From positions 124,001 through 188,000 of the forward strand of contig NC_019814.1 in assembly GCF_000319245.1 (NCBI RefSeq): 64,000 nt of DNA. Reading direction: 5' to 3'. Positions 14,951-48,341 of the stretch are shown here, piece after piece. The notes beneath the pieces are model-generated. The model did no database searches. It saw only the letters and a list, made by a program, of their open reading frames with translations, and was not told where the DNA came from. The DNA is from Candidatus Kinetoplastibacterium blastocrithidii (ex Strigomonas culicis). GTDB lineage: Bacteria > Pseudomonadota > Gammaproteobacteria > Burkholderiales > Burkholderiaceae_B. Position 1 is the stretch's first letter. The number at the start of each line of letters is the position of its first letter. A program made the translations under genes and the position numbers.

Positions 14951-15490
14951 TTAATTACGAAAAGGAAATCCGAAGGCTGTTAATAAAGCTTTCGCTTCTT
15001 CATCAGTCTTCGCTGTAGTAGTGATGCTAATATTCATTCCACGCAAAGTATCGACTTTATCATACTCGACCTCAGGAAAAATGATCTGTTCTTTAACACC
15101 TATATTATAATTGCCATGGCCATCAAAAGCACGACCAGAGACACCTCTAAAATCGCGAACTCTAGGCAAAGCAACAGAAACCAAACGATCCAGAAACTCA
15201 TACATGCGTTCACCGCGTAGAGTAACCATACAACCTATTGGATAATTTTCACGAATCTTAAAACCAGCTATAGCTTTACGAGTTTTAGTTACAACAACTT
15301 TTTGTCCTGATATTTTTGTTAAATCAGATACAGCATGATCAACAATTTTTTTATCAGAAACAGCCTCAGATACTCCCATATTAAGAGTAATCTTAGATAG
15401 ACGTGGAGCTTCCATTATGCTTTTATATCCAAATCTTGACTTTAGGCTAGCTATAACTGTATTTCTATACAAATCTTGTAAACGAGACAT
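14951..15490 (-). CDS. rplE: 50S ribosomal protein L5
   Basis: 5S rRNA-binding protein forming an intersubunit bridge with S13. 179 residues, the E. coli length. Contains [35 protein letters not shown] and [20 protein letters not shown]. Ten bases after rplX in the spc operon. Confidence 0.97.
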
Positions 15491-15500
15491 GCTTCGCTCC

Positions 15501-15821
15501 CTATGATTTATTATCTACAGAAGAACCATTGGAACGGAATACTCTAGTCTTTACTCCATCTAATTCCTTAATAAGGACACGCTCTCCTTTTCCAGTATCC
15601 TTATTGAATAAGGCTACATTAGATATATGTATAGGCATAGACTTGCTGGTAATTCCTCCAGGATTATTACTCATTGGATTAGCCTTTAAATGCTTCTTCA
15701 CAACATTTATTCCTTCTACCAACAAGTGATCCTTTCCAACAACTGCTGAAACTATCCCACGACGCTTTTTATCGCGACCAGCAAGAATAACAACCTCATC
15801 ACCTTTACGAATTTTATTCAT
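15501..15821 (-). CDS. rplX: 50S ribosomal protein L24
   Basis: Assembly initiator of the 50S subunit with a KOW motif near the N-terminus ([17 protein letters not shown]). 106 residues from ATG 15821 (E. coli 104); the upstream in-frame extension of 13 residues to 15860 would overlap rplN and lacks family similarity. Spc operon, 10 bp after rplN. Confidence 0.95.
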
Positions 15822-15831
15822 TAAAGCTTCC

Positions 15832-16200
15832 CTACAAAACTTCCGGAGCCAAGGATACAATCTTCATAAACCTCTCATTACGTAACTCACGAGTGACAGG
15901 TCCAAAGATACGAGTACCAATTGGTTCTAACTTTGCATTTAGTAATACAGCAGCATTACTATCAAATCGCAGTAATGCTCCGTCTTTCCGACGAACACCT
16001 TTTGCTGTACGCACAACAACAGCATTATACACTTCACCCTTTTTTACACGTCCGCGTGGGGCTGCATCTTTAACACTTACTTTAATAATATCGCCGATTC
16101 CGGCATAACGTCGCTTAGACCCGCCAAGAACTTTGATACACATAACATGACGTGCACCAGTATTATCAGCCACATCTAGCGTGGTTTGCATTTGGATCAT
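15832..16200 (-). CDS. rplN: 50S ribosomal protein L14
   Basis: Large-subunit protein near the GTPase-associated face. 122 residues (E. coli 123). Begins [20 protein letters not shown] and contains the signature [20 protein letters not shown]. First gene of the spc group; the 223-bp gap upstream, to rpsQ, is where an operon promoter would be expected. Confidence 0.97.
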
Positions 16201-29300: not shown

Positions 29301-30538
29301 TCCAAGATATCCCACACTACTGGATCCTGACTATCAACCATCTTTTTAGAAGCTTTGATAGTATTAGAAAGCCCCATCATTTCAAGCTTATTAAATATAA
29401 ATGGTTTAAATAGCTCTAAAGCCATTAATTTAGGTATACCACATTGATGCAACTTGAGCTGAGGCCCAACAACGATAACAGAACGTCCTGAATAATCTAC
29501 TCTTTTGCCAAGTAGATTTTGACGAAACCTACCACCTTTACCTTTAATCATATCGGCTAAGGACTTTAACTGGCGCTTATTAACACCAGTCATTGCTTTA
29601 CCTCTACGACCATTATCAAGCAAAGAATCAACCGCCTCTTGAAGCATTCTTTTTTCATTTCTAAGAATAATCTCAGGAGCCTTTAGCTCTATCAATCTTT
29701 TCAATCGATTATTGCGATTTATAACACGGCGGTACAAATCATTTAGGTCAGAAGTAGCAAAACGCCCACCATCTAAAGGCACTAAAGGTCTTAAATCAGG
29801 AGGCAATACAGGCAACACCTCCATAATCATCCATTCTGCTTTTATATCGGATCTATGGAATCCTTCCATGACTTTTAGTCTTTTGGATATCTTCTTTATT
29901 TTTGCCTCAGAATTAGTATTTTTGATTTCATTCCTAAGAACTTCAATTTCTCGACTAATATCCATAGTACGCAATAATTCACGCACTGCTTCGGCACCCA
30001 TCAAAGCTTTAAATTCATCGCCATATTCTTCTGTTTTTGATATAAAATCATCGTCAGTCATTATCTGACAACGTTTTAGAGGTGTCATACCTGCATCAAT
30101 AACACACCAAGCCTCAAAGTATAGAACTCTTTCTATATCACGTAGTGTCATATCTAATACTATACCCAATCTAGATGGCAAACTTTTCAGAAACCAAATA
30201 TGTGCAACTGGACTAGCAAGCTCTATATGCCCCATTCTTTCTCTGCGAACCTTTGATGCGGTTACTTCAACCCCACATTTCTCACAAATAACACCTCTAT
30301 GTTTTAGACGCTTATATTTTCCACATAAACACTCGTAATCCTTTATAGGACCAAATATTTTTGAGCAAAATAAACCATCTCTTTCCGGTTTAAAAGTGCG
30401 ATAATTTATAGTTTCCGGCTTACGAACCTCTCCGTATGACCAAGAACGAATCTTCTCAGGAGAAGCCAGGCTAACCTTTATAGAATCAAACTGCTCATCC
30501 TGGGAAACTTGTTTAAAAAGATCAATAAGAGCTTTCAT
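26354..30538 (-). CDS. rpoC: DNA-directed RNA polymerase subunit beta'
   Basis: Catalytic large subunit; coordinates the active-site magnesium through NADFDGDQM (about residues 460-468). 1,394 residues (E. coli 1,407). The N-terminal zinc site ([21 protein letters not shown]) and the second zinc site ([17 protein letters not shown]) are complete, and the trigger loop region [11 protein letters not shown] is present. The start overlaps the rpoB stop by one base (TAATG), giving coupled synthesis of the two large subunits. Confidence 0.98.
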
Positions 30539-33500
30539 TAGTTACGCTCCAAATCTATATCCAAACCTAAAGAACGAATTTCTTTAACAAGAACATTAAA
30601 GGATTCAGGCATTCCAGCATCAATTAAATGATCTCCCTTAACTATGCTTTCATAAACCTTAGTCCTTCCAGAAATATCATCAGATTTCACTGTCAACATT
30701 TCTTGCAATGTATAAGCCGCACCATAAGCCTCCAAAGCCCAAACCTCCATTTCGCCAAAACGCTGACCACCGAATTGCGCTTTACCTCCTAAAGGTTGTT
30801 GAGTAACCAAAGAGTACGGACCTATGGATCTCGCATGCATCTTATCATCGACCAAATGATGTAATTTCAAATAGTACATATACCCAACAGTAACAGGTCG
30901 TTCAAACTTTTCACCAGTCCTACCATCAAATAACCAAGACTGAGCTCTAGATTTAGTTAGTTGCATTTTATCAGCAATATTATCTGGGTAAGCTATATTT
31001 AGCAGATCATGAATTTCTTTTTCATTGACCCCATCAAAAACAGGAGTAGAAACAGGCAAACCTGGTTTCAAATTATTAGCCAATTCTAAAATCTCACTAT
31101 CAGTCAAACTATCTATAGAGACAATATTAGATTTATAAATACTACTTAAATATTCCCTAATTTTTGAGGACTGATGTTTCAATTCAGAATTAAGGACATC
31201 ACTGATCCGAGCTCCTATACCCTTAGCAGCCCATCCTAGATGAACTTCTAAAACCTGACCAACATTCATCCTAGAAGGAACGCCTAAAGGATTTAGAACA
31301 ATATCAACTGGCGTTCCATCAGCCATATAAGGCATATCCTCAACTGGAATAATTCTAGAAACAACACCTTTGTTACCATGTCTGCCAGCCATTTTATCGC
31401 CAGGTTGTAGTCTACGCTTTACAGCCAAGTATACTTTCACCATCTTCAAAACACCGGGAGGCAACTCATCACCTTGTGTTAATTTCTTCTTCTTCTCTTC
31501 AAATAAAGAATCAAACTGTTTTCGTTCCTGATCAAGAGAATATTTTGCTTGCTCTAATATACTAGCAGCATCTTCTGATTCAAGACGAATATCAAACCAG
31601 TACCAATGATCAATAGATTTAAGATAGTCCTTAGTAATCAAAGATCCTTTTAATAATTTTAAAGGGCCTCCATTAGCTATCTGACCGACCAATACTTTTT
31701 CAATCCTATCAAACTGATCTTTTTCAACTATACGCAAACGATCATTTAAATCTTGACGATACTTTTTAAGATCATCATCAATAATAGATTGAGCTCTATT
31801 ATCTCTTACAACACCTTCTCTAGTAAAAACTCTAACGTCTATTACAGTACCACTCATTCCAGAAGGAACTCTCAAAGAAGTATCCTTCACATCAGATGCC
31901 TTCTCTCCAAAGATTGCTCTTAGTAATTTTTCTTCTGGTGTTAATTGAGTCTCTCCCTTTGGGGTAACCTTGCCAACTAAAACATCATCAGGACCAACTT
32001 CAGCACCTATACAAATAATACCAGAATCATCCAATCTATTTAATTGTACTTCGGAAAGATTACTAATATCTCTAGTAATATCTTCTGGACCTAGCTTAGT
32101 GTCCCTTGAAACGACAGTTAATTCTTCTATATGAACAGACGTATACCTATCATCAGAGACAACCTTTTCTGAAATAAGAATTGAATCTTCAAAATTGTAA
32201 CCATTCCAAGGCATAAAAGCGATTAACATATTCTGTCCTAGAGCAAGCTCCCCTAGATCTGTTGAGGCACTGTCAGCCAAAACATCACCTTTTGATATAT
32301 TGTCACCAAGTCTTACAATTGGACGTTGATTTATATTAGTATTTTGATTTGATCTGGTATATTTAATGAGATTATATATATCAACACCAACCTCTCCTGC
32401 TATGTTTTCTGAATCATTCACTCTAATAACTATACGTTCAGCATCAACATAATCAACTAGACCACCCCTTAAGGCCTGAACTGTTGTTCCAGAGTCAACA
32501 GCTACTATGCGTTCAAGACCAGTACCAACGATAGGCTTTTCTGGACGCAAACAAGGAACTGCTTGCCTTTGCATATTAGCACCCATAAGAGCTCGATTCG
32601 CATCATCGTGCTCCAAGAAAGGAATTAATGAAGCAGCGACCGATACTATTTGAGAAGGAGCCACATCCATATAATGAACATTACCTGGAGAAGTTAATAA
32701 AGTCTCACCAGATTCTCTACAAGCAACCAGCTCATCTGTAAAAAAACCTTCTTTATTTAACTCTGCATTAGCCTGAGCAATAACATAATTACTTTCTTCT
32801 ATAGCTGAAAGATAATCAATTTGATCACTAACTTTACCATTTAGAACTTTTCTATATGGTGTTTCCAGAAAACCATATTCATTTAAACGGGCATATAAAG
32901 ACATAGAATTTATAAGACCGATATTAGGACCCTCAGGAGTTTCTATTGGGCAAACTCTACCGTAATGAGTTGGATGAACATCTCGCACTTCAAACCCAGC
33001 TCTATCTCTAGTCAACCCTCCAGGCCCCAATGCTGAAACACGACGCTTATGTGTAACCTCTGATAAAGGATTAGTTTGATCCATAAACTGAGAAAGCTGA
33101 CTGGAGCCAAAAAATTCTTTTATAGCTGCAGAAATTGGTTTTGAATTTATCAAATCGTGAGGCATTAAATTATCAGCCTCTGCCTGACCTAGTCTTTCCT
33201 TAACGGCCCTTTCAACTCTAACTAAACCAGATCTGAACTGATTTTCAGTCAATTCTCCGACACACCTAACTCTCCGATTTCCAAGATGGTCTATATCATC
33301 TATACTTCCATGTCCATTACGCAAATTAACTAATAACTTTATAATATCAAGGATATCCTCACTAGTTAGTATGGTTTTATCATCCAAGTATTCACGACCA
33401 AGCCTACTATTTATCTTCATTCTTCCCACACGAGATAAATCATAGGTAGAATCACTGAAAAATAATCGATCAAACAATGATTCAACAGCCTCCTCTGTAG

Positions 33501-39987: not shown

Positions 39988-40653
39988 TTAATTACTAGCT
40001 CTCTTAATTACTACTAGGCAACGTTGAGAATTGATGCCAGGAACATTAAGATTATATATATTGCTAATACCCCAATCATTAATACAAGAAAAATCATCAA
40101 TTTCTTTATTTGGAATTAAGCTTTTCATGGAACATAAAATACCATCGTTTTTAACATGATGGCCTGAGAGCTCTACAAATTTAGACAATGAAGAAAAAGC
40201 CCTTGATATTACAACATCACATTCTAAAGATTTAAGATTTTCTATCCTCGAGTGATAAACAATGACGTTTGATAATAAAAGACTACTTGAAACATACTTA
40301 AGGAAAGATGTTTTCTTAAAAATAGAATCTATACAGGAAATACTGCAATTTGATCGCATTATGGCTAAAACTATACCTGGAAGACCAGCTCCAGAACCAA
40401 CATCACATACCCTTAGATTTTTTTTCGAAAACGAGTCCAAGAAAGGTAAAACAGATAGACTATCTACTACGTGATATACAAGCATATCCTTATAATTTTT
40501 AACAGATGTTATATTGCAATATTTGTTCCATTTTTGCATCATAGATAAGTAGTTACTCAACAATATTTTTTGCTCATTAGATATTTTAATTTTAAGAGTA
40601 GAGCAATAATCAGATAAAAAATCATCTGGTAAGTAATTTCTATATAGATGCAT
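39988..40653 (-). CDS. rsmG: 16S rRNA (guanine-527-N7) methyltransferase RsmG
   Basis: SAM-dependent methylase of 16S rRNA G527 (GidB). 221 residues (E. coli 207). SAM motif [16 protein letters not shown] near 80-95, and downstream [14 protein letters not shown]. Its start overlaps the mnmG stop by 14 bp, so mnmG-rsmG is one translationally linked unit. In Bordetella parA and parB follow; here the next genes are tRNA-Tyr and partners. Confidence 0.95.
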
Positions 40654-42547
40654 TTGAACTCTTCAATTTTTTAACATAAACAAAAAGTACTGATATAGCC
40701 GCTGGAGTAACACCAGGAATTCTGCTAGCCTGTCCTATTGTTTCTGGTCTATAATCATTCAGTTTTTGTCGAACCTCAATGGATAGATTAATCATGGAAA
40801 GATAATCTATATTATCAGGTATAGAATATGACTCATTCTCAGATATTCTTTTTATCTCATCTGCCTGCTTAGAAATATATCCTGAATATTTTATATGAAT
40901 ATCGATTTGGTCTGATAAAATATCATCATGAGAAACACCTGGGCCTATCAAATAACAACCTGAATCTTTTATAGACATTAGTTCTTTATATTTAATGTTT
41001 GGTCTTTTTAGAATATCAAAAACAGATAAATCATTATCAAGATTTTTTCCTAATTTATCATAACTATAATATTTTCCTAGAGACCTAAAATTCAATGAAG
41101 TATTTTTTAATCTTTGTATCTCTTTATTTAAAAGATCGCGTCTTCTATTAAATAAATCCCAGCGATTATCATCGACAATACCCATGCCCCTACCTAATTC
41201 AGTAAGCCTTAAATCAGCATTGTCCTCTCTTAGAGTTAAACGATACTCTGCTCGTGATGTAAACATCCTATATGGTTCGGTAGTGCCTCTTGTTATTAAA
41301 TCGTCTACCATTACTCCGATATATGAATCACTCCTAAGGGGAAGCCATTGATCTAAACCCTTACATTTTCTTGAGGCATTTAAACCTGCTAATAAACCCT
41401 GGGCGGCTGCTTCCTCATAACCAGTAGTTCCATTAATTTGACCAGCCATATATAAACCATTTATATTTTTCGTCTCCAATGTGGCTTTTAGAGACTTAGG
41501 ATCAAAATAATCATACTCAATTGCGTAACCATACCTTAATATATGTGCGTTATATAAACCAGGCAGAGAGCGAACTAAATCAATCTGAGCATCAAAAGGC
41601 AAGCTTGTAGATATGCCATTTGGATAAAATTCATTAGTATATAAACCTTCTGGTTCTAAGAAAACCTGGTGAGAGTCCTTATCAGAAAACCTAGTGATCT
41701 TATCTTCTATAGATGGACAGTATCTTGGTCCCTTAGACTCTATTGATCCATTGTATAAAGGCGACCTAGGGAATGAATTTCTAACTATTTCGTGAGACAA
41801 TGGATTAGTCCTGGTAATCCAACAAGGTATCTGTTTGGGATGCATGTTTCTATCCCCAATGAAAGAGAAAACAGGTGCCGGTAAATCTCCTTCTTGAATC
41901 TGAAGCATATTAAAATCAATAGTTCTGCCATCTATGCGAGGAGGAGTTCCAGTTTTTAGACGTCCGTAGGGAAAGCCAAGATCTTTTAGATTTTCAGACA
42001 AAGAAACTACTGATTGATCACCAGATCTACCGCCAGAAAAACTACTATTCCCCATATGTATAATTCCATTAAGAAAAGTACCTGTTGTCAACACAACTGA
42101 TTTTGCTTTTATGTCAATCCCAAGACTAGTCTTAATACCAAAAACACTATTGTTTTTTACTAAAATACTATTAACTGTTTGTTGAATAATGTAAAGATTC
42201 TCTTGATTCTCTAGTTTTTGTCTAACAATTTGACGATATAATGATCTGTCTATTTGAGCTCTTGTTGATCTAACAGCAGGACCTTTTGATAAATTTAACG
42301 TCTTAAAATGAATGCCCGCACAATCAGCAGATAAAGCCATAGACCCCCCAAGAGCATCTATTTCTTTCACTAAATGACCTTTGCCAATACCACCTATTGA
42401 TGGATTACAAGACATTTGTCCCAGTGTGTCAAGATTACCAGTTACAAGCAAAGTATCAGAACCAGATCTTGCAGAAGATAGAGCAGCCTCTGTTCCAGCA
42501 TGTCCTCCACCTACTATTATTACATCAAAATTAAAGTTATTATCCAT
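40640..42547 (-). CDS. mnmG: tRNA uridine 5-carboxymethylaminomethyl synthase MnmG (GidA)
   Basis: FAD subunit of the MnmEG complex, which modifies wobble uridine 34. 635 residues (E. coli 629). N-terminal dinucleotide fold [52 protein letters not shown]; and the C-terminal [13 protein letters not shown]. Its GTPase partner mnmE lies 218 bp upstream, a gap that carries DnaA-box-like sites. Confidence 0.98.
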
Positions 42548-42765
42548 TAATATCTTTTTATTTAATTGTTTATTTTAATAATTATTATAATTATTAATGT
42601 GTTTTTCTGTGAATAACCTTATATTGTTTTTAATATTCAATGAGTTAATTATAATAATAACTAATGTAATAAGCATGTTTTATTACATAATAGTTTCTGG
42701 ATAAAAAACAGTTTTATTTTTTTACTCTAGTTATTCATATTTCTTCATAAAGTTATTAACAATAA
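42548..42765. other. candidate replication origin (oriC) between mnmG and mnmE
   Basis: This 218-bp gap has a perfect DnaA box, TTATTCACA on the minus strand (42608-42616), and three sites with one mismatch to TTATNCACA: TTATCCAGA (minus, 42696-42704), TTATTCATA (42731-42739) and TTATTAACA (42753-42761). Next to them 42551-42600 is almost pure A+T and could be the unwinding element. The dnaA upstream region lacks such a cluster. As I recall, Bordetella genomes are numbered from mnmG, which agrees. Confidence 0.6.
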
Positions 42766-44115
42766 TTATTTTCCTATACAAAAGCTAGAAAATATTTTCT
42801 CTAGCATATCTTCTGATGTAAATTGTCCTGTTATCTCGCACAAATTACAGTGTGACAATCGCAATTCTTCAGCTAAAATATCTAGAAATAAATTTTCTTG
42901 TGTATAAGATATTGCTATTTCTATATGTTCTAATGCTTCTTGTACGGCATGAAAATGCCTTTCCCTGGTAGAGAAAGCATCCTCATCTGATGTTTTGTAT
43001 TCTATTTTTTTTAATATTTCTTTTTTTAGAAAATCCAGACCAGCGCCGCTCTTTGATGATACCAAAATGCCATCATAATAATCGTGATTTTTTTTATATA
43101 AAAGATCTGATTTATTATATATTTTTATAACATTTGTTTTTTTTGATATTTTTTTATTTATGTAATACTCTGTATTATCATCTCCTGTGTTTGAATCTAT
43201 AACATGCAACACTATGTCTGCATTTTCTATTGCCTCCCATGACTTTTCTATTCCTTTTTTTTCTATCAAATTATTACTATGTCTTATCCCAGCAGTATCT
43301 ATAATATTTACCATGACCCCTTTTATATAAATAGCATTAGAAACTTTGTCCCTTGTTGTTCCGGCTAATGGGGTTACTATTGCTATTTCTTCTTCGGATA
43401 ATGCATTCAATAAGCTTGATTTTCCGGAATTTGGCCGCCCTGTTAAAACTATGTTTATACCGTTTTTTAGTATTAAATTGTTTTTTATTTTTGATTTTAA
43501 TTTACTTAGCTTTGATTTTATTGATACCAATGAAACATATATATCTTTTTTTTGAAGATCAGTAATATCTTCTTCAGGAAAGTCTAAATTTGCTTCTAAC
43601 AAAACTCTAAGATTTATTATTTCATTAGATATATCATTTATTACTAATGATAGCGATCCAGACATGGTTTTTATAGAACTTCTTGCCGCGGCTATTGAAG
43701 AAGAATTAATTAAATCAGATATAGCTTCTGCTTGGATTAAATCAATTTTTCCATTTAAGAATGATCTTTTAGTGAACTCTCCTGGATTTGCTAATCTAAC
43801 ACCAATATCTTTACCTTTTAATATGCATATGTCTAGAATTTGATGCTGAGTAACCATTCCACCGTGACATTGAATTTCGATCACATCTTCACCGGTAAAT
43901 GATCTAGGTGCTTTAAAAAAAATTACTATTACATTATCGATAATTTCCTGATCATTATCAATCAAAGTAAGGTAATTTACTGTTCTTTCTTTAATTTCCT
44001 TTTTAAAAAGACTCAGCATTAGCGGCAATAATTCTTTTCCAGAGATTCTTATTATTCCTATGCCGCCTGATCCATGTGCAGTAGCTATGGCTACGATTGG
44101 TACGTTTTTTAACAT
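42766..44115 (-). CDS. mnmE: tRNA modification GTPase MnmE (TrmE)
   Basis: Partner of MnmG in U34 modification. 449 residues (E. coli 454). N-terminal folate-binding domain with GSGGIGIIRISG; the G domain has GRPNSGKSSLLNAL (about 224-237), DTAGIR and NKSD; it ends in CIGK, the catalytic C-terminal motif. An 82-bp gap with a 12-bp hairpin separates it from yidC upstream. Its plus-strand composition is noticeably T-richer than that of mnmG. Confidence 0.97.
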   Translation of the reverse strand: MLKNVPIVAIATAHGSGGIGIIRISGKELLPLMLSLFKKEIKERTVNYLTLIDNDQEIIDNVIVIFFKAPRSFTGEDVIEIQCHGGMVTQHQILDICILKGKDIGVRLANPGEFTKRSFLNGKIDLIQAEAISDLINSSSIAAARSSIKTMSGSLSLVINDISNEIINLRVLLEANLDFPEEDITDLQKKDIYVSLVSIKSKLSKLKSKIKNNLILKNGINIVLTGRPNSGKSSLLNALSEEEIAIVTPLAGTTRDKVSNAIYIKGVMVNIIDTAGIRHSNNLIEKKGIEKSWEAIENADIVLHVIDSNTGDDNTEYYINKKISKKTNVIKIYNKSDLLYKKNHDYYDGILVSSKSGAGLDFLKKEILKKIEYKTSDEDAFSTRERHFHAVQEALEHIEIAISYTQENLFLDILAEELRLSHCNLCEITGQFTSEDMLEKIFSSFCIGK

Positions 44116-44197: not shown

Positions 44198-45820
44198 TTA
44201 TTGTCTGCTTGTTTCTCTTGTTATAAACCATTGTTGAGCTATTGATAGTATATTATTTATACACCAGTACAAAACTAAACCAGATGGAAAAAAGAACATC
44301 ATGCCACCAAATACTAAAGGCATTATCATCATTACTTTTGCTTGCACCGGATCAGGTGGTGATGGATTTAGTTTTATTTGAACAACCATTGTAATCATCA
44401 TTAATATTGGCAGAATCATGAATGGATCTGTTGCAGATAAATCTTTAATCCAAAATATCCAAGGAGCTCCTCTCATTTCAACACTGGATAAAAGAACCCA
44501 ATATAAAGATATAAAAACAGGTATTTGTATAATCATTGGCAGACATCCTCCCAAAGGATTAATTTTTTCCTTGCGATATAATTCTATTATTGATGAATTA
44601 AATCTTTTTGTATCGTCCCCACACTGTTCTTTTATCGACTGTATGCGAGGAGATATTTTTTTTAATCTCGCCATTGATCTATAACTTTTTGATGCCAAAG
44701 GAAAGAAAATCATTTTTACGAATACTGTCAACAGTACTATTGTCCATCCCCAATTCTTTGTTAATGAGAAAATCCAATTCATTAAATTGAATAATGGTTT
44801 AGCTATTATTGTAAACACTCCGTAGTCTACAACCAAATCTAATCCTTTAGATATTTCTGACATTTGTTTTTGATCTTGCGGCCCAATCCATAAAAATGAT
44901 AAATTTTCATGGTAGCTATCAGGTTCTATTTGTCCTAAGGATTCTATAGTTCTTGCAGCGAATATTTTATTTTCATTATCCACCTCAACAATCTCGTTAT
45001 TTCTATTAGAATTACTAGATGGTATACAAGCGGTAGCAAAATAGTGCTGTATCATGGCGATCCATCCATTCTCAGATTTTTTTGCATATTTAGCTTTATT
45101 ATTAGAAATATCCTTGAATGATACTTTTTGAAATTTTTCTTTTTCCGAGTATAAAGCTACTCCATTAAATGTTTTATAAAAACTTGAACTATCTGTCGGC
45201 TCGCTACTATCCCTTAGTATTTGTAAATACAGGTGAGGATTTATTGATTTGTCATTTTTGTTGATAACTTTATGATTTACTTTTATTGCATAGCTATTCA
45301 TGCTCAAAATGAAAGTTTTTATGAGAATAACATCACCTGATTCACAAGAAAAACTTATTTCTATATTTTGATCTGATATTTTTTTATTTGATAATAGATT
45401 AAATTTATTATTGTGATTTGGTATATTTTCTTTTCCTAATAAACCTGATTGTATTGTATACAAGAAATTGTCATTTATATCTAATAATATAGTATGTTTA
45501 TTATCATTTTGATTAGTGTACTTTAGCAATTCTGCTTTTACTATCTGAGCTCCTGTTTTACTAAAAGTTATTTTTAAAACATCATTCTCGACTGTAACAG
45601 TATCATCCATTAGTTTTTTTGCCAGATCAATATAAGATTTGACGGTTTCTTTTTTACTGTCTTTTAGTAAAGGAACATGTTTCTGTAAATTATTATTATT
45701 TGATTCAGGCAGTAAAATTTCTTGGTTTGTTTTGATTAAGTTTTCATTTTGCCAATTGTTCCAAAGAACTAAGATAGAGCAGGAAAAAATAATCCAAAGT
45801 AGAGTTCGTTTTATATCCAT
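44198..45820 (-). CDS. yidC: membrane protein insertase YidC
   Basis: Inserts and folds inner-membrane proteins alone or with SecYEG. 540 residues (E. coli 548). One N-terminal membrane segment (about 6-20), a large periplasmic domain rich in Asn and Lys, then the conserved 60K-insertase core from about residue 345, including NWGWTIVLLTVFVKMIFFPL and NPLGGCLPMIIQIPVFISLY, with the groove-facing Arg in LASKSYRSMARLK. The periplasmic part is divergent, as in other AT-rich symbionts. It is 51 bp from yidD. Confidence 0.96.
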   Translation of the reverse strand: MDIKRTLLWIIFSCSILVLWNNWQNENLIKTNQEILLPESNNNNLQKHVPLLKDSKKETVKSYIDLAKKLMDDTVTVENDVLKITFSKTGAQIVKAELLKYTNQNDNKHTILLDINDNFLYTIQSGLLGKENIPNHNNKFNLLSNKKISDQNIEISFSCESGDVILIKTFILSMNSYAIKVNHKVINKNDKSINPHLYLQILRDSSEPTDSSSFYKTFNGVALYSEKEKFQKVSFKDISNNKAKYAKKSENGWIAMIQHYFATACIPSSNSNRNNEIVEVDNENKIFAARTIESLGQIEPDSYHENLSFLWIGPQDQKQMSEISKGLDLVVDYGVFTIIAKPLFNLMNWIFSLTKNWGWTIVLLTVFVKMIFFPLASKSYRSMARLKKISPRIQSIKEQCGDDTKRFNSSIIELYRKEKINPLGGCLPMIIQIPVFISLYWVLLSSVEMRGAPWIFWIKDLSATDPFMILPILMMITMVVQIKLNPSPPDPVQAKVMMIMPLVFGGMMFFFPSGLVLYWCINNILSIAQQWFITRETSRQ

Positions 45821-46620: not shown

Positions 46621-46922
46621 TTGAAGTCTACTAAAAGAACAAAAATAGGAGTATAGTGTATCATATCAAAAATAATAACTGCTAATGTTATCCGTGTTTG
46701 TAATTTTGTCGTAAAAAATACATTTTGTTGATATATAATGTATCGCTTACAGGTACATCTCATAATTCATAGCAAACTTACATAACAGGAAGTGTATATG
46801 TTAGGCTAAGAAATTAATTTCATCAAGTCGTTTATATGATATGTATACATAACGTATAATCTGATTGCTTTGTTTTTTTATATTTTATAATACGAATTTA
46901 TCTTGGCTTGCATAATAATATC
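46621..46922. promoter_or_regulatory. rpmH-dnaA divergent intergenic region
   Basis: About 300 bp between the divergent starts of rpmH and dnaA. It must hold promoters for both. TATACT-like (minus) and TATAAT-like (plus, 46855-46860) hexamers are visible but lack good -35 partners. Only one degenerate DnaA site, TTATCCGTG (46688-46696, two mismatches), was found. A 10-bp palindrome atgtatacat lies at 46841-46850. No hairpin terminator or RNA gene was recognised. Confidence 0.45.
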
Positions 46923-48340
46923 ATGGAAGATTTTTGGTTATCTTTTATCTCTAGTCTAGAAAAGGAACTTCCTCCTCAGCAAATTAGTGCCTGGATTAAG
47001 CCACTTATTCCTGTTGCTTTTGATGAATCTAAAAGCATTTTACGTATAATGGCTCCTAATAGATTTAAACTTGATCTAGTAAAAAAGAAATTCGCTAGTC
47101 AAATTGAAGTGCTAGCCTCAGATTGGTTTAAGAAATCAGTAAATGTTGTATTTGAGTTACCAGCTAATGGTGAAAGATCTATTCAAAGGAAAAATGATAC
47201 GTCCTCTTCAGATGTTGATAATGATCCTTATGAAAAAAAGTCAGGCAGCAATAGTAGTACGATAGCCCCAAAGATTGAATTAGCAACCTCTCATGAGGTT
47301 GCTAATATAGCCTATGAGCGCTCTAGACTAAATACTGTTCTGACTTTTGATGGCTTTGTTACAGGCAAGGCAAATCAGCTAGCTAGGGCTGCTGCAGTTC
47401 AAGTTTCTGAGAATCCTGGGGTTTCATATAATCCTCTTTTCTTATATGGAGGAGTAGGATTAGGAAAAACACACTTGATACATGCTGTTGGTAACTCAAT
47501 GTTGTTTGCCAGGAGTGATGTTAGGGTTAGGTACGTTCATGCAGATCAATATGTTTCAGACGTTGTTAAAGCCTATCAGAGAAAGGCTTTTGATGAGTTT
47601 AAAAAATATTATCATTCTTTAGATTTATTGCTTATAGATGATATACAGTTTTTTTCTGGTAAAAACAGAACACAGGAAGAATTTTTTTATGCTTTTGAAG
47701 CTATGGTTGCTCAACATAAGCAAATAATAATCACTAGTGATACATATCCTAAGGAATTATCTGGTATTGATAGTAGATTAATATCTAGATTTGACTCTGG
47801 TTTAACTGTGGCCATAGAGCCCCCTGAATTAGAAATGAGAGTAGCTATTTTATTAAGAAAAGCAGAGTCAGAAAATTTACCAATGCCAGAAGAGGTCGCT
47901 TTTTTTATAGCAAAACATTTAAGAAGCAATGTAAGAGAATTGGAAGGCGCATTACGTAAGGTTTTAGCCTACATCCGTTTTCATGGCAGGAATGTTTTGA
48001 CTGTTGATGTTTGCAAAGAAGCATTAAAAGATTTGTTATCTGTTTCTAATGGACAAATTACTGTAGAGAATATACAAAAGACTGTTGCCGATTACTATAA
48101 GATTAAAGTAGCCGACATGTACTCTAAAAGAAGACCTGCTAATATAGCTCTACCACGCCAAATTGCTATGTATCTATCTAAAGAACTTACTCAGAAGAGT
48201 TTGCCAGAGATAGGTGATTTATTTGGTGGTCGTGATCACACTACTGTATTGCATGCTGTTAGAAAAATCTCTGATGCACGCATAAAACAGTCTGAGTTAA
48301 ATCATAATCTTCATGTGCTTGAACAAACTTTAAAGGGATA

Positions 48341-48341
<1 letters not shown>
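46923..48341 (+). CDS. dnaA: chromosomal replication initiator DnaA
   Basis: AAA+ ATPase that opens oriC. 472 residues (E. coli 467) from ATG 46923; an in-frame TTG at 46908 adds five residues. N-terminal oligomerisation domain ([21 protein letters not shown]), short Ser/Asn-rich linker, Walker [10 protein letters not shown], Walker B LLIDDIQF, arginine finger region [10 protein letters not shown], and the DNA-binding signature [15 protein letters not shown]. Its last base is the first base of the dnaN start (TAATG). Confidence 0.98.

What the first reader, a model, noticed from the sequence alone, without database searches (positions are those of the whole stretch)
42548..42765. Likely replication origin sits between mnmG and mnmE, 4 kb from dnaA
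The gap holds one perfect and three one-mismatch DnaA boxes beside a nearly pure A+T stretch, whereas the rpmH-dnaA gap holds only a two-mismatch site. Composition also seems to shift here: on the plus strand a 180-nt mnmG sample (41341-41520) has A 55/T 59, while a 180-nt mnmE sample (43201-43380), coded on the same strand, has A 45/T 75. A switch at this point is what opposite replication arms would give.
Basis: partly seen in the sequence, partly recalled or inferred. Interest (0 to 1): 0.62.

Follow-up and report, generated by a model that had tools for sequence, protein, structure and literature searches.

The report
Symbiont replication origin beside mnmG
The 218-base gap between two tRNA-modification genes is almost certainly where this tiny bacterial symbiont starts copying its chromosome: a shortened version of the E. 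coli-type origin, 4 kb away from the initiator gene dnaA.

Summary
Confirmed and strengthened. The window is from an 820,037-bp reduced betaproteobacterial genome, by size and kinship a Candidatus Kinetoplastibacterium (inferred). A gene-strand-aware composition model trained outside the window places the switch between replication arms at 42,392-42,826 (3 log-units), essentially the mnmG-mnmE gap. The rpmH-dnaA gap is worse by 29-63 log units. The left part of the gap is the least stable duplex in the 64 kb. The gap has the E. coli oriC layout and orientation: mnmG | AT-rich element | R1-type DnaA box | IHF-type site at +27 | R4-type box at +145 (E. coli: +27, +180). Seven of eight genus members share it (IHF +26/27, R4 +143-146). 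The eighth has lost both the IHF site and the IHF subunits, keeping only HU. Several free-living family members carry R1/R4 pairs 178-181 bp apart in the same mnmG-mnmE interval, and skew puts the origin of one of them there. So this is an inherited, compacted E. coli-type oriC: a new member of a known kind. The paired loss of IHF and its site is the part most worth pursuing. No marker-frequency data were available.

The parts
42548..42765 (.). proposed oriC: mnmG-mnmE intergenic gap, 218 bp, 85% A+T
   Evidence: arm-switch interval 42392-42826; boxes above chance
42558..42597 (.). proposed DNA unwinding element
   Evidence: least stable 40-mer of the 64-kb window by nearest-neighbour energy; weakest 60-, 100- and 200-bp stretches cover it
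42608..42616 (-). R1-type DnaA box, TTATTCACA on the minus strand (TGTGAATAA on plus)
   Evidence: perfect to TTATNCACA; aligned R1-type box in all congeners, degenerate in G003 and G004
42635..42647 (+). IHF-type site ATTCAATGAGTTA, one mismatch to WATCAANNNNTTR, 27 bp after the R1 start
   Evidence: same motif at +26/27 in seven of eight congeners and at +27 in E. coli
42696..42704 (-). weak inner DnaA box TTATCCAGA
   Evidence: one mismatch; TTATCCAAA at the same place in G001 and G002
42731..42739 (+). weak inner DnaA box TTATTCATA
   Evidence: one mismatch; also in G001
42753..42761 (+). R4-type DnaA box TTATTAACA, 145 bp after the R1 start
   Evidence: one mismatch; R4-type box at +143 to +146 in seven congeners, perfect TTATTCACA in G004
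40640..42547 (-). mnmG (gidA), left-arm composition
   Evidence: TIGR00136 857 bits; arm score -11.4
42766..44115 (-). mnmE, right-arm composition
   Evidence: NF003661 403 bits; arm score +17.0
46908..48341 (+). dnaA, initiator
   Evidence: TIGR00362 537 bits; all examined E. coli box-contact residues and H/B motif residues kept

Best explanation
The gap 42548-42765 is the chromosomal replication origin (oriC), a compact descendant of the E. coli-type oriC kept next to mnmG. Inferred mechanism: DnaA, encoded 4 kb away, binds the R1-type box at 42608. IHF bends the DNA at 42635, bringing DnaA bound at the weaker inner boxes and the R4-type box back towards the AT-rich element at 42558-42597. 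That element melts, its T-rich strand is held by the DnaA H/B motifs, helicase is loaded, and two forks leave in opposite directions, giving the opposite strand asymmetries of mnmG and mnmE. Shown here: the place of the arm switch, the low duplex stability, the conserved elements and spacings, and genes for DnaA with the needed residues and for IhfA-like, IhfB-like, HU-like and Hda-like proteins. Inferred: binding, bending, melting and initiation.
For: Arm switch pinned to 42392-42826 by a model trained outside the window; all analysed genes through mnmG score left arm, all from mnmE on score right arm. Switch within 1 kb of the same gap in six congeners. Box enrichment over shuffles. Weakest duplex of the window. 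R1, IHF at +26/27 and R4 at +143-146 in seven congeners; R1+IHF pairs in 0.1-1.4% of shuffles. E. coli oriC measured the same way has IHF at +27 and R4 at +180 with mnmG on the same side. R1/R4 pairs 178-181 bp apart between mnmG and mnmE in several free-living relatives, origin there by skew in G009. DnaA residues, IHF/HU, Hda.
Against: No read-depth or biochemical data. Only one box is perfect; the IHF site of this species has one mismatch and the R4-type box one. Raw cumulative GC skew has its minimum at 45,213. In congeners G004 and G006 the best break lies inside mnmG and the gap is 4-5 log units worse. Congeners are related, so their shared motifs are not independent.
Confidence: 0.88

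Rival explanations
1. The origin is between rpmH and dnaA (46.6-46.9 kb), a common bacterial place, and the mnmG-mnmE gap is only AT-rich spacer with chance DnaA boxes.
For: Five of the six fully assembled congeners in the set are numbered from just before dnaA; raw cumulative GC minimum at 45,213 is nearly as close to it.
Against: 29 (fourfold) to 63 (third positions) log units worse than the gap, worse in all six congeners by 6-43 units; no box with fewer than two mismatches there.
Confidence: 0.05
2. The origin is in this gap, but the IHF-type motif is coincidental; DnaA alone or with HU opens it, and only position and boxes are inherited.
For: The IHF site has one mismatch in this species and its two nearest relatives; an HU-like protein is present; G003 lives without IHF.
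Against: The motif stays at +26/27 in all seven genomes that keep three HU/IHF proteins, and is missing only in the one that lost two of them; E. coli needs this spacing (PMC5742627).
Confidence: 0.2
3. The composition switch marks an old inversion or rearrangement border rather than the origin.
For: A border between two differently oriented segments would also flip strand asymmetry.
Against: The flip holds over both whole arms to a single opposite point at about 525-538 kb, and its place is shared by congeners and by the free-living G009.
Confidence: 0.02

Closest known systems
Escherichia coli K-12 oriC (NC_000913.3, 3925744-3925975)
   Same: Beside mnmG with the same orientation; AT-rich element, R1 box, IHF motif at +27, R4 box in inverted orientation
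   Different: R1-R4 about 145 bp instead of 180; boxes more degenerate; no GATC in the gap sequence (printed); neighbour is mnmE instead of mioC
Origins of free-living family members (G009, G011, G012, G014, G020, G024; Pusillimonas, Advenella alkanexedens)
   Same: Lie between mnmG and mnmE, R1/R4 boxes in the same orientation; skew supports the place in G009
   Different: R1-R4 178-181 bp; IHF-like motif best at +36; some carry two units
Oxalobacter sp. unit upstream of mnmG (L226)
   Same: R1-R4 145 bp and perfect IHF motif at +27, the same compact spacing
   Different: Opposite orientation relative to mnmG; its skew was not tested

Membership tests
Bacterial chromosomal oriC | Lies at the switch between oppositely replicated arms | tested here: met
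   42392-42826 at 3 log units
Bacterial chromosomal oriC | Cluster of DnaA boxes | tested here: met
   one perfect and three one-mismatch boxes, P 0.0015 by shuffles
Bacterial chromosomal oriC | Easily melted AT-rich element beside the boxes | tested here: met
   weakest duplex of 64 kb
Bacterial chromosomal oriC | Replication starts there (marker frequency, autonomous replication) | not testable with these tools
   no reads and no bench work available
E. coli-type oriC | Order and orientation mnmG-DUE-R1-IHF-R4 | tested here: met
E. coli-type oriC | R1 to IHF spacing of E. coli (+27) | tested here: met
   +27 here with one mismatch, +26/27 in seven congeners
E. coli-type oriC | R1 to R4 spacing of E. 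coli (180) | tested here: not met
   145 here, 143-146 in congeners; spacing varies in other betaproteobacteria, 145-181. I therefore file it as a compact relative, not as an identical oriC
E. coli-type oriC | Initiator with E. coli box-contact and ssDNA-binding residues, IHF and Hda encoded | tested here: met
   IHF and Hda scores lie below the curated cut-offs
E. coli-type oriC | Inner low-affinity site arrays and GATC/SeqA control | not tested
   two weak inner boxes seen; arrays too degenerate to call in 85% A+T DNA; SeqA and Dam genes were not searched

The most novel reading that the evidence does not exclude
In the most reduced congener (G003, 741,697 bp) both IHF subunits and the IHF site of the origin were lost together, so initiation there has become IHF-independent (HU or DnaA alone), while seven sister genomes keep both: a natural experiment in how a bending-dependent origin is simplified in a symbiont.
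Probability: 0.5. Interest if true: 0.55.

Novelty: new member of a known kind. Interest (0 to 1): 0.42.

Why it matters
It gives a near base-level origin for a symbiont that divides at a set stage of its trypanosomatid host's cell cycle, where replication control is of direct interest. It shows that numbering such genomes from dnaA does not number them from the origin. It also supplies a set of minimal E. coli-type origins with natural spacing changes, including one lineage that lost IHF, which could be tested in a reconstituted E. coli initiation system.

Tried and rejected
Raw cumulative skews misplace the switch (GC minimum 45,213; AT maximum 40,484 on a plateau that runs to about 42.5 kb) because of gene strand, so I used a gene-strand-aware likelihood. 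Locally fitted breakpoints in free-living relatives with a crude ORF caller gave scattered answers. Training on stretches far from the origin put G009's break at its R1/R4 unit; in G020 the break fell beside mnmE, a few hundred bases from its pair, which was 3.8 units worse. IHF at +27 was expected in the free-living relatives too; it is best at +36 there. The dif-motif search was inconclusive: 34 matches with up to 3 mismatches against 18 for the reversed control. G008, G025, Achromobacter and Advenella S44 have DnaA boxes upstream of mnmG but no clean 170-190 bp pair. Literature searches found no paper on the oriC of this genus in the library; whether the DoriC database lists a prediction could not be checked.

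Full report
SETTING. The window is G000:C1:124001-188000 of a single 820,037-bp contig. Seven further genomes of the same genus are 0.74-0.83 Mb. Gene order is rsmG-mnmG(-) | gap | mnmE-yidC-rnpA-rpmH(-) | dnaA-dnaN-gyrB(+).

OBSERVATION. The gap is 218 bp and 85% A+T, with one perfect TTATNCACA box and three with one mismatch. Dinucleotide shuffles reach four such boxes in 0.15% of cases. The rpmH-dnaA gap has none with fewer than two mismatches, though eight with two rather than one.

WHERE THE ARMS SWITCH. Stretches sampled round the chromosome show that the fourfold-degenerate A/T balance, read by gene strand, is opposite on the two arms. A likelihood model trained only outside the window (leading-strand genes A 0.305, T 0.517; lagging A 0.461, T 0.361) places the break between 42,485 and 42,491. 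The 3-log-unit interval is 42,392-42,826 with fourfold sites and 42,395-42,814 with all third positions. Every gene analysed up to and including mnmG scores left arm, and every one from mnmE onward scores right arm. A break at rpmH-dnaA costs 29 (fourfold) or 63 (all third positions) log units. The opposite switch, the terminus, is diffuse at about 525-538 kb of the contig, giving arms of roughly 360-370 and 450-460 kb. In six congeners with both flanks the locally fitted break falls within 1 kb of the same gap, on the mnmG side. The gap is 2.2-5 units below the best there (outside the 3-unit interval in G004 and G006), and the dnaA-upstream site is 6-43 units below.

ANATOMY. From the mnmG side: 42558-42597 is the least stable 40-mer of the 64 kb, and the weakest 60-, 100- and 200-bp stretches also cover it. 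An R1-type box TGTGAATAAC starts at 42608. An IHF-type site ATTCAATGAGTTA (one mismatch) starts at +27. Weak boxes follow at 42696 and 42731, and an R4-type box at 42753 (+145). E. coli MG1655 oriC, fetched and measured the same way, has R1, an IHF motif (two mismatches to the consensus) at +27 and R4 at +180, with mnmG on the same side. In the genus, R1 plus an IHF motif at +26/27 occurs in seven of eight gaps, and an R4-type box at +143 to +146 in the same seven. The joint R1-IHF match (each with at most one mismatch) arises in 0.1-1.4% of shuffles of each gap. The congeners are related, not independent samples, though the seven fall into at least three groups by MnmE identity (G000-G002; G004; G005-G007). 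In G004 the whole unit is duplicated in tandem, shift about 270 bp.

PROTEINS. DnaA keeps every E. coli box-contact residue examined (R399, R407, Q408, H434, T435, T436 and others), the H/B residues V211 and R245 and the arginine finger R285. The genome encodes three HU/IHF-family proteins, one closest to IhfA, one that I read as IhfB and one as HU, and an Hda-like protein. These namings rest on scores below the curated cut-offs and on sequence inspection. G003, the smallest genome, has only the HU-like protein (with an IhfA query) and is the only one whose gap lacks the IHF motif at +26/27. This is a single event, so suggestive rather than proof.

ANCESTRY. In several free-living members of the family the mnmG-mnmE interval (about 1 to 27 kb) contains pairs TGTGGATAA...TTATCCACA 178-181 bp apart in the same orientation (G009, G011, G012, G014, G020, G024), as do Pusillimonas, Advenella alkanexedens and an Alcaligenaceae isolate upstream of mnmG. 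An IHF-like motif there is best at +36, about one helical turn further than in the genus. Remote-trained skew puts the origin of G009 at 30,405-33,299 of its region, containing one unit, with the dnaA site 17 units worse. In G020 the break falls a few hundred bases from its pair. So the mnmG-side origin looks inherited, and the symbionts kept a shortened form. Oxalobacteraceae carry R1-IHF(+27)-R4(157-159) units, often two in tandem, and Oxalobacter has the same 145-bp spacing as the window. The Burkholderia and Ralstonia loci listed show no boxes within about 10 kb upstream of mnmG.

MECHANISM. In E. coli the spacings between the unwinding element, R1 and the IHF site are strictly required for unwinding (PMC5742627). 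By that homology I infer DnaA binding at R1, IHF bending at +27, return of the DnaA complex to the unwinding element, melting and bidirectional replication. Position and layout are shown; binding, bending, melting and initiation are inferred.

VERDICT. The element is a well-supported origin of a known kind. The new information is its precise place, its compact E. coli-type layout, its ancestry, and the paired loss of IHF and IHF site in one lineage. Without read depth or biochemistry it remains a prediction.

Noticed in passing
G003 (gap in L055, 15630-15869) and its whole genome: The smallest congener has one HU/IHF-family protein where the other seven have three, and its gap lacks the IHF motif at +26/27.
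   Followed up: partly
G004 gap (L057, about 15320-15864): The origin unit is duplicated in tandem with a shift of about 270 bp (two R1-like boxes, two IHF motifs, two R4 boxes).
   Followed up: partly
L166, L177, L186, L198, L202 (Oxalobacteraceae and kin), upstream of mnmG: Two tandem R1-IHF(+27)-R4(157-159) units about 330-440 bp apart, in the opposite orientation relative to mnmG.
   Followed up: partly
G009 (L071-L073) and G024 (L090), between mnmG and mnmE: Two R1/R4 units about 1.2-1.3 kb apart in one interval: possible double origins.
   Followed up: no
window 42899-42907: A further perfect DnaA box (TTATACACA, minus strand) inside the 3' part of mnmE, 134 bp from the gap; not at the same place in the congeners.
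   Followed up: no
G000:C1 about 525-538 kb: The terminus switch is diffuse and off the antipode of the origin, so the arms are unequal.
   Followed up: partly
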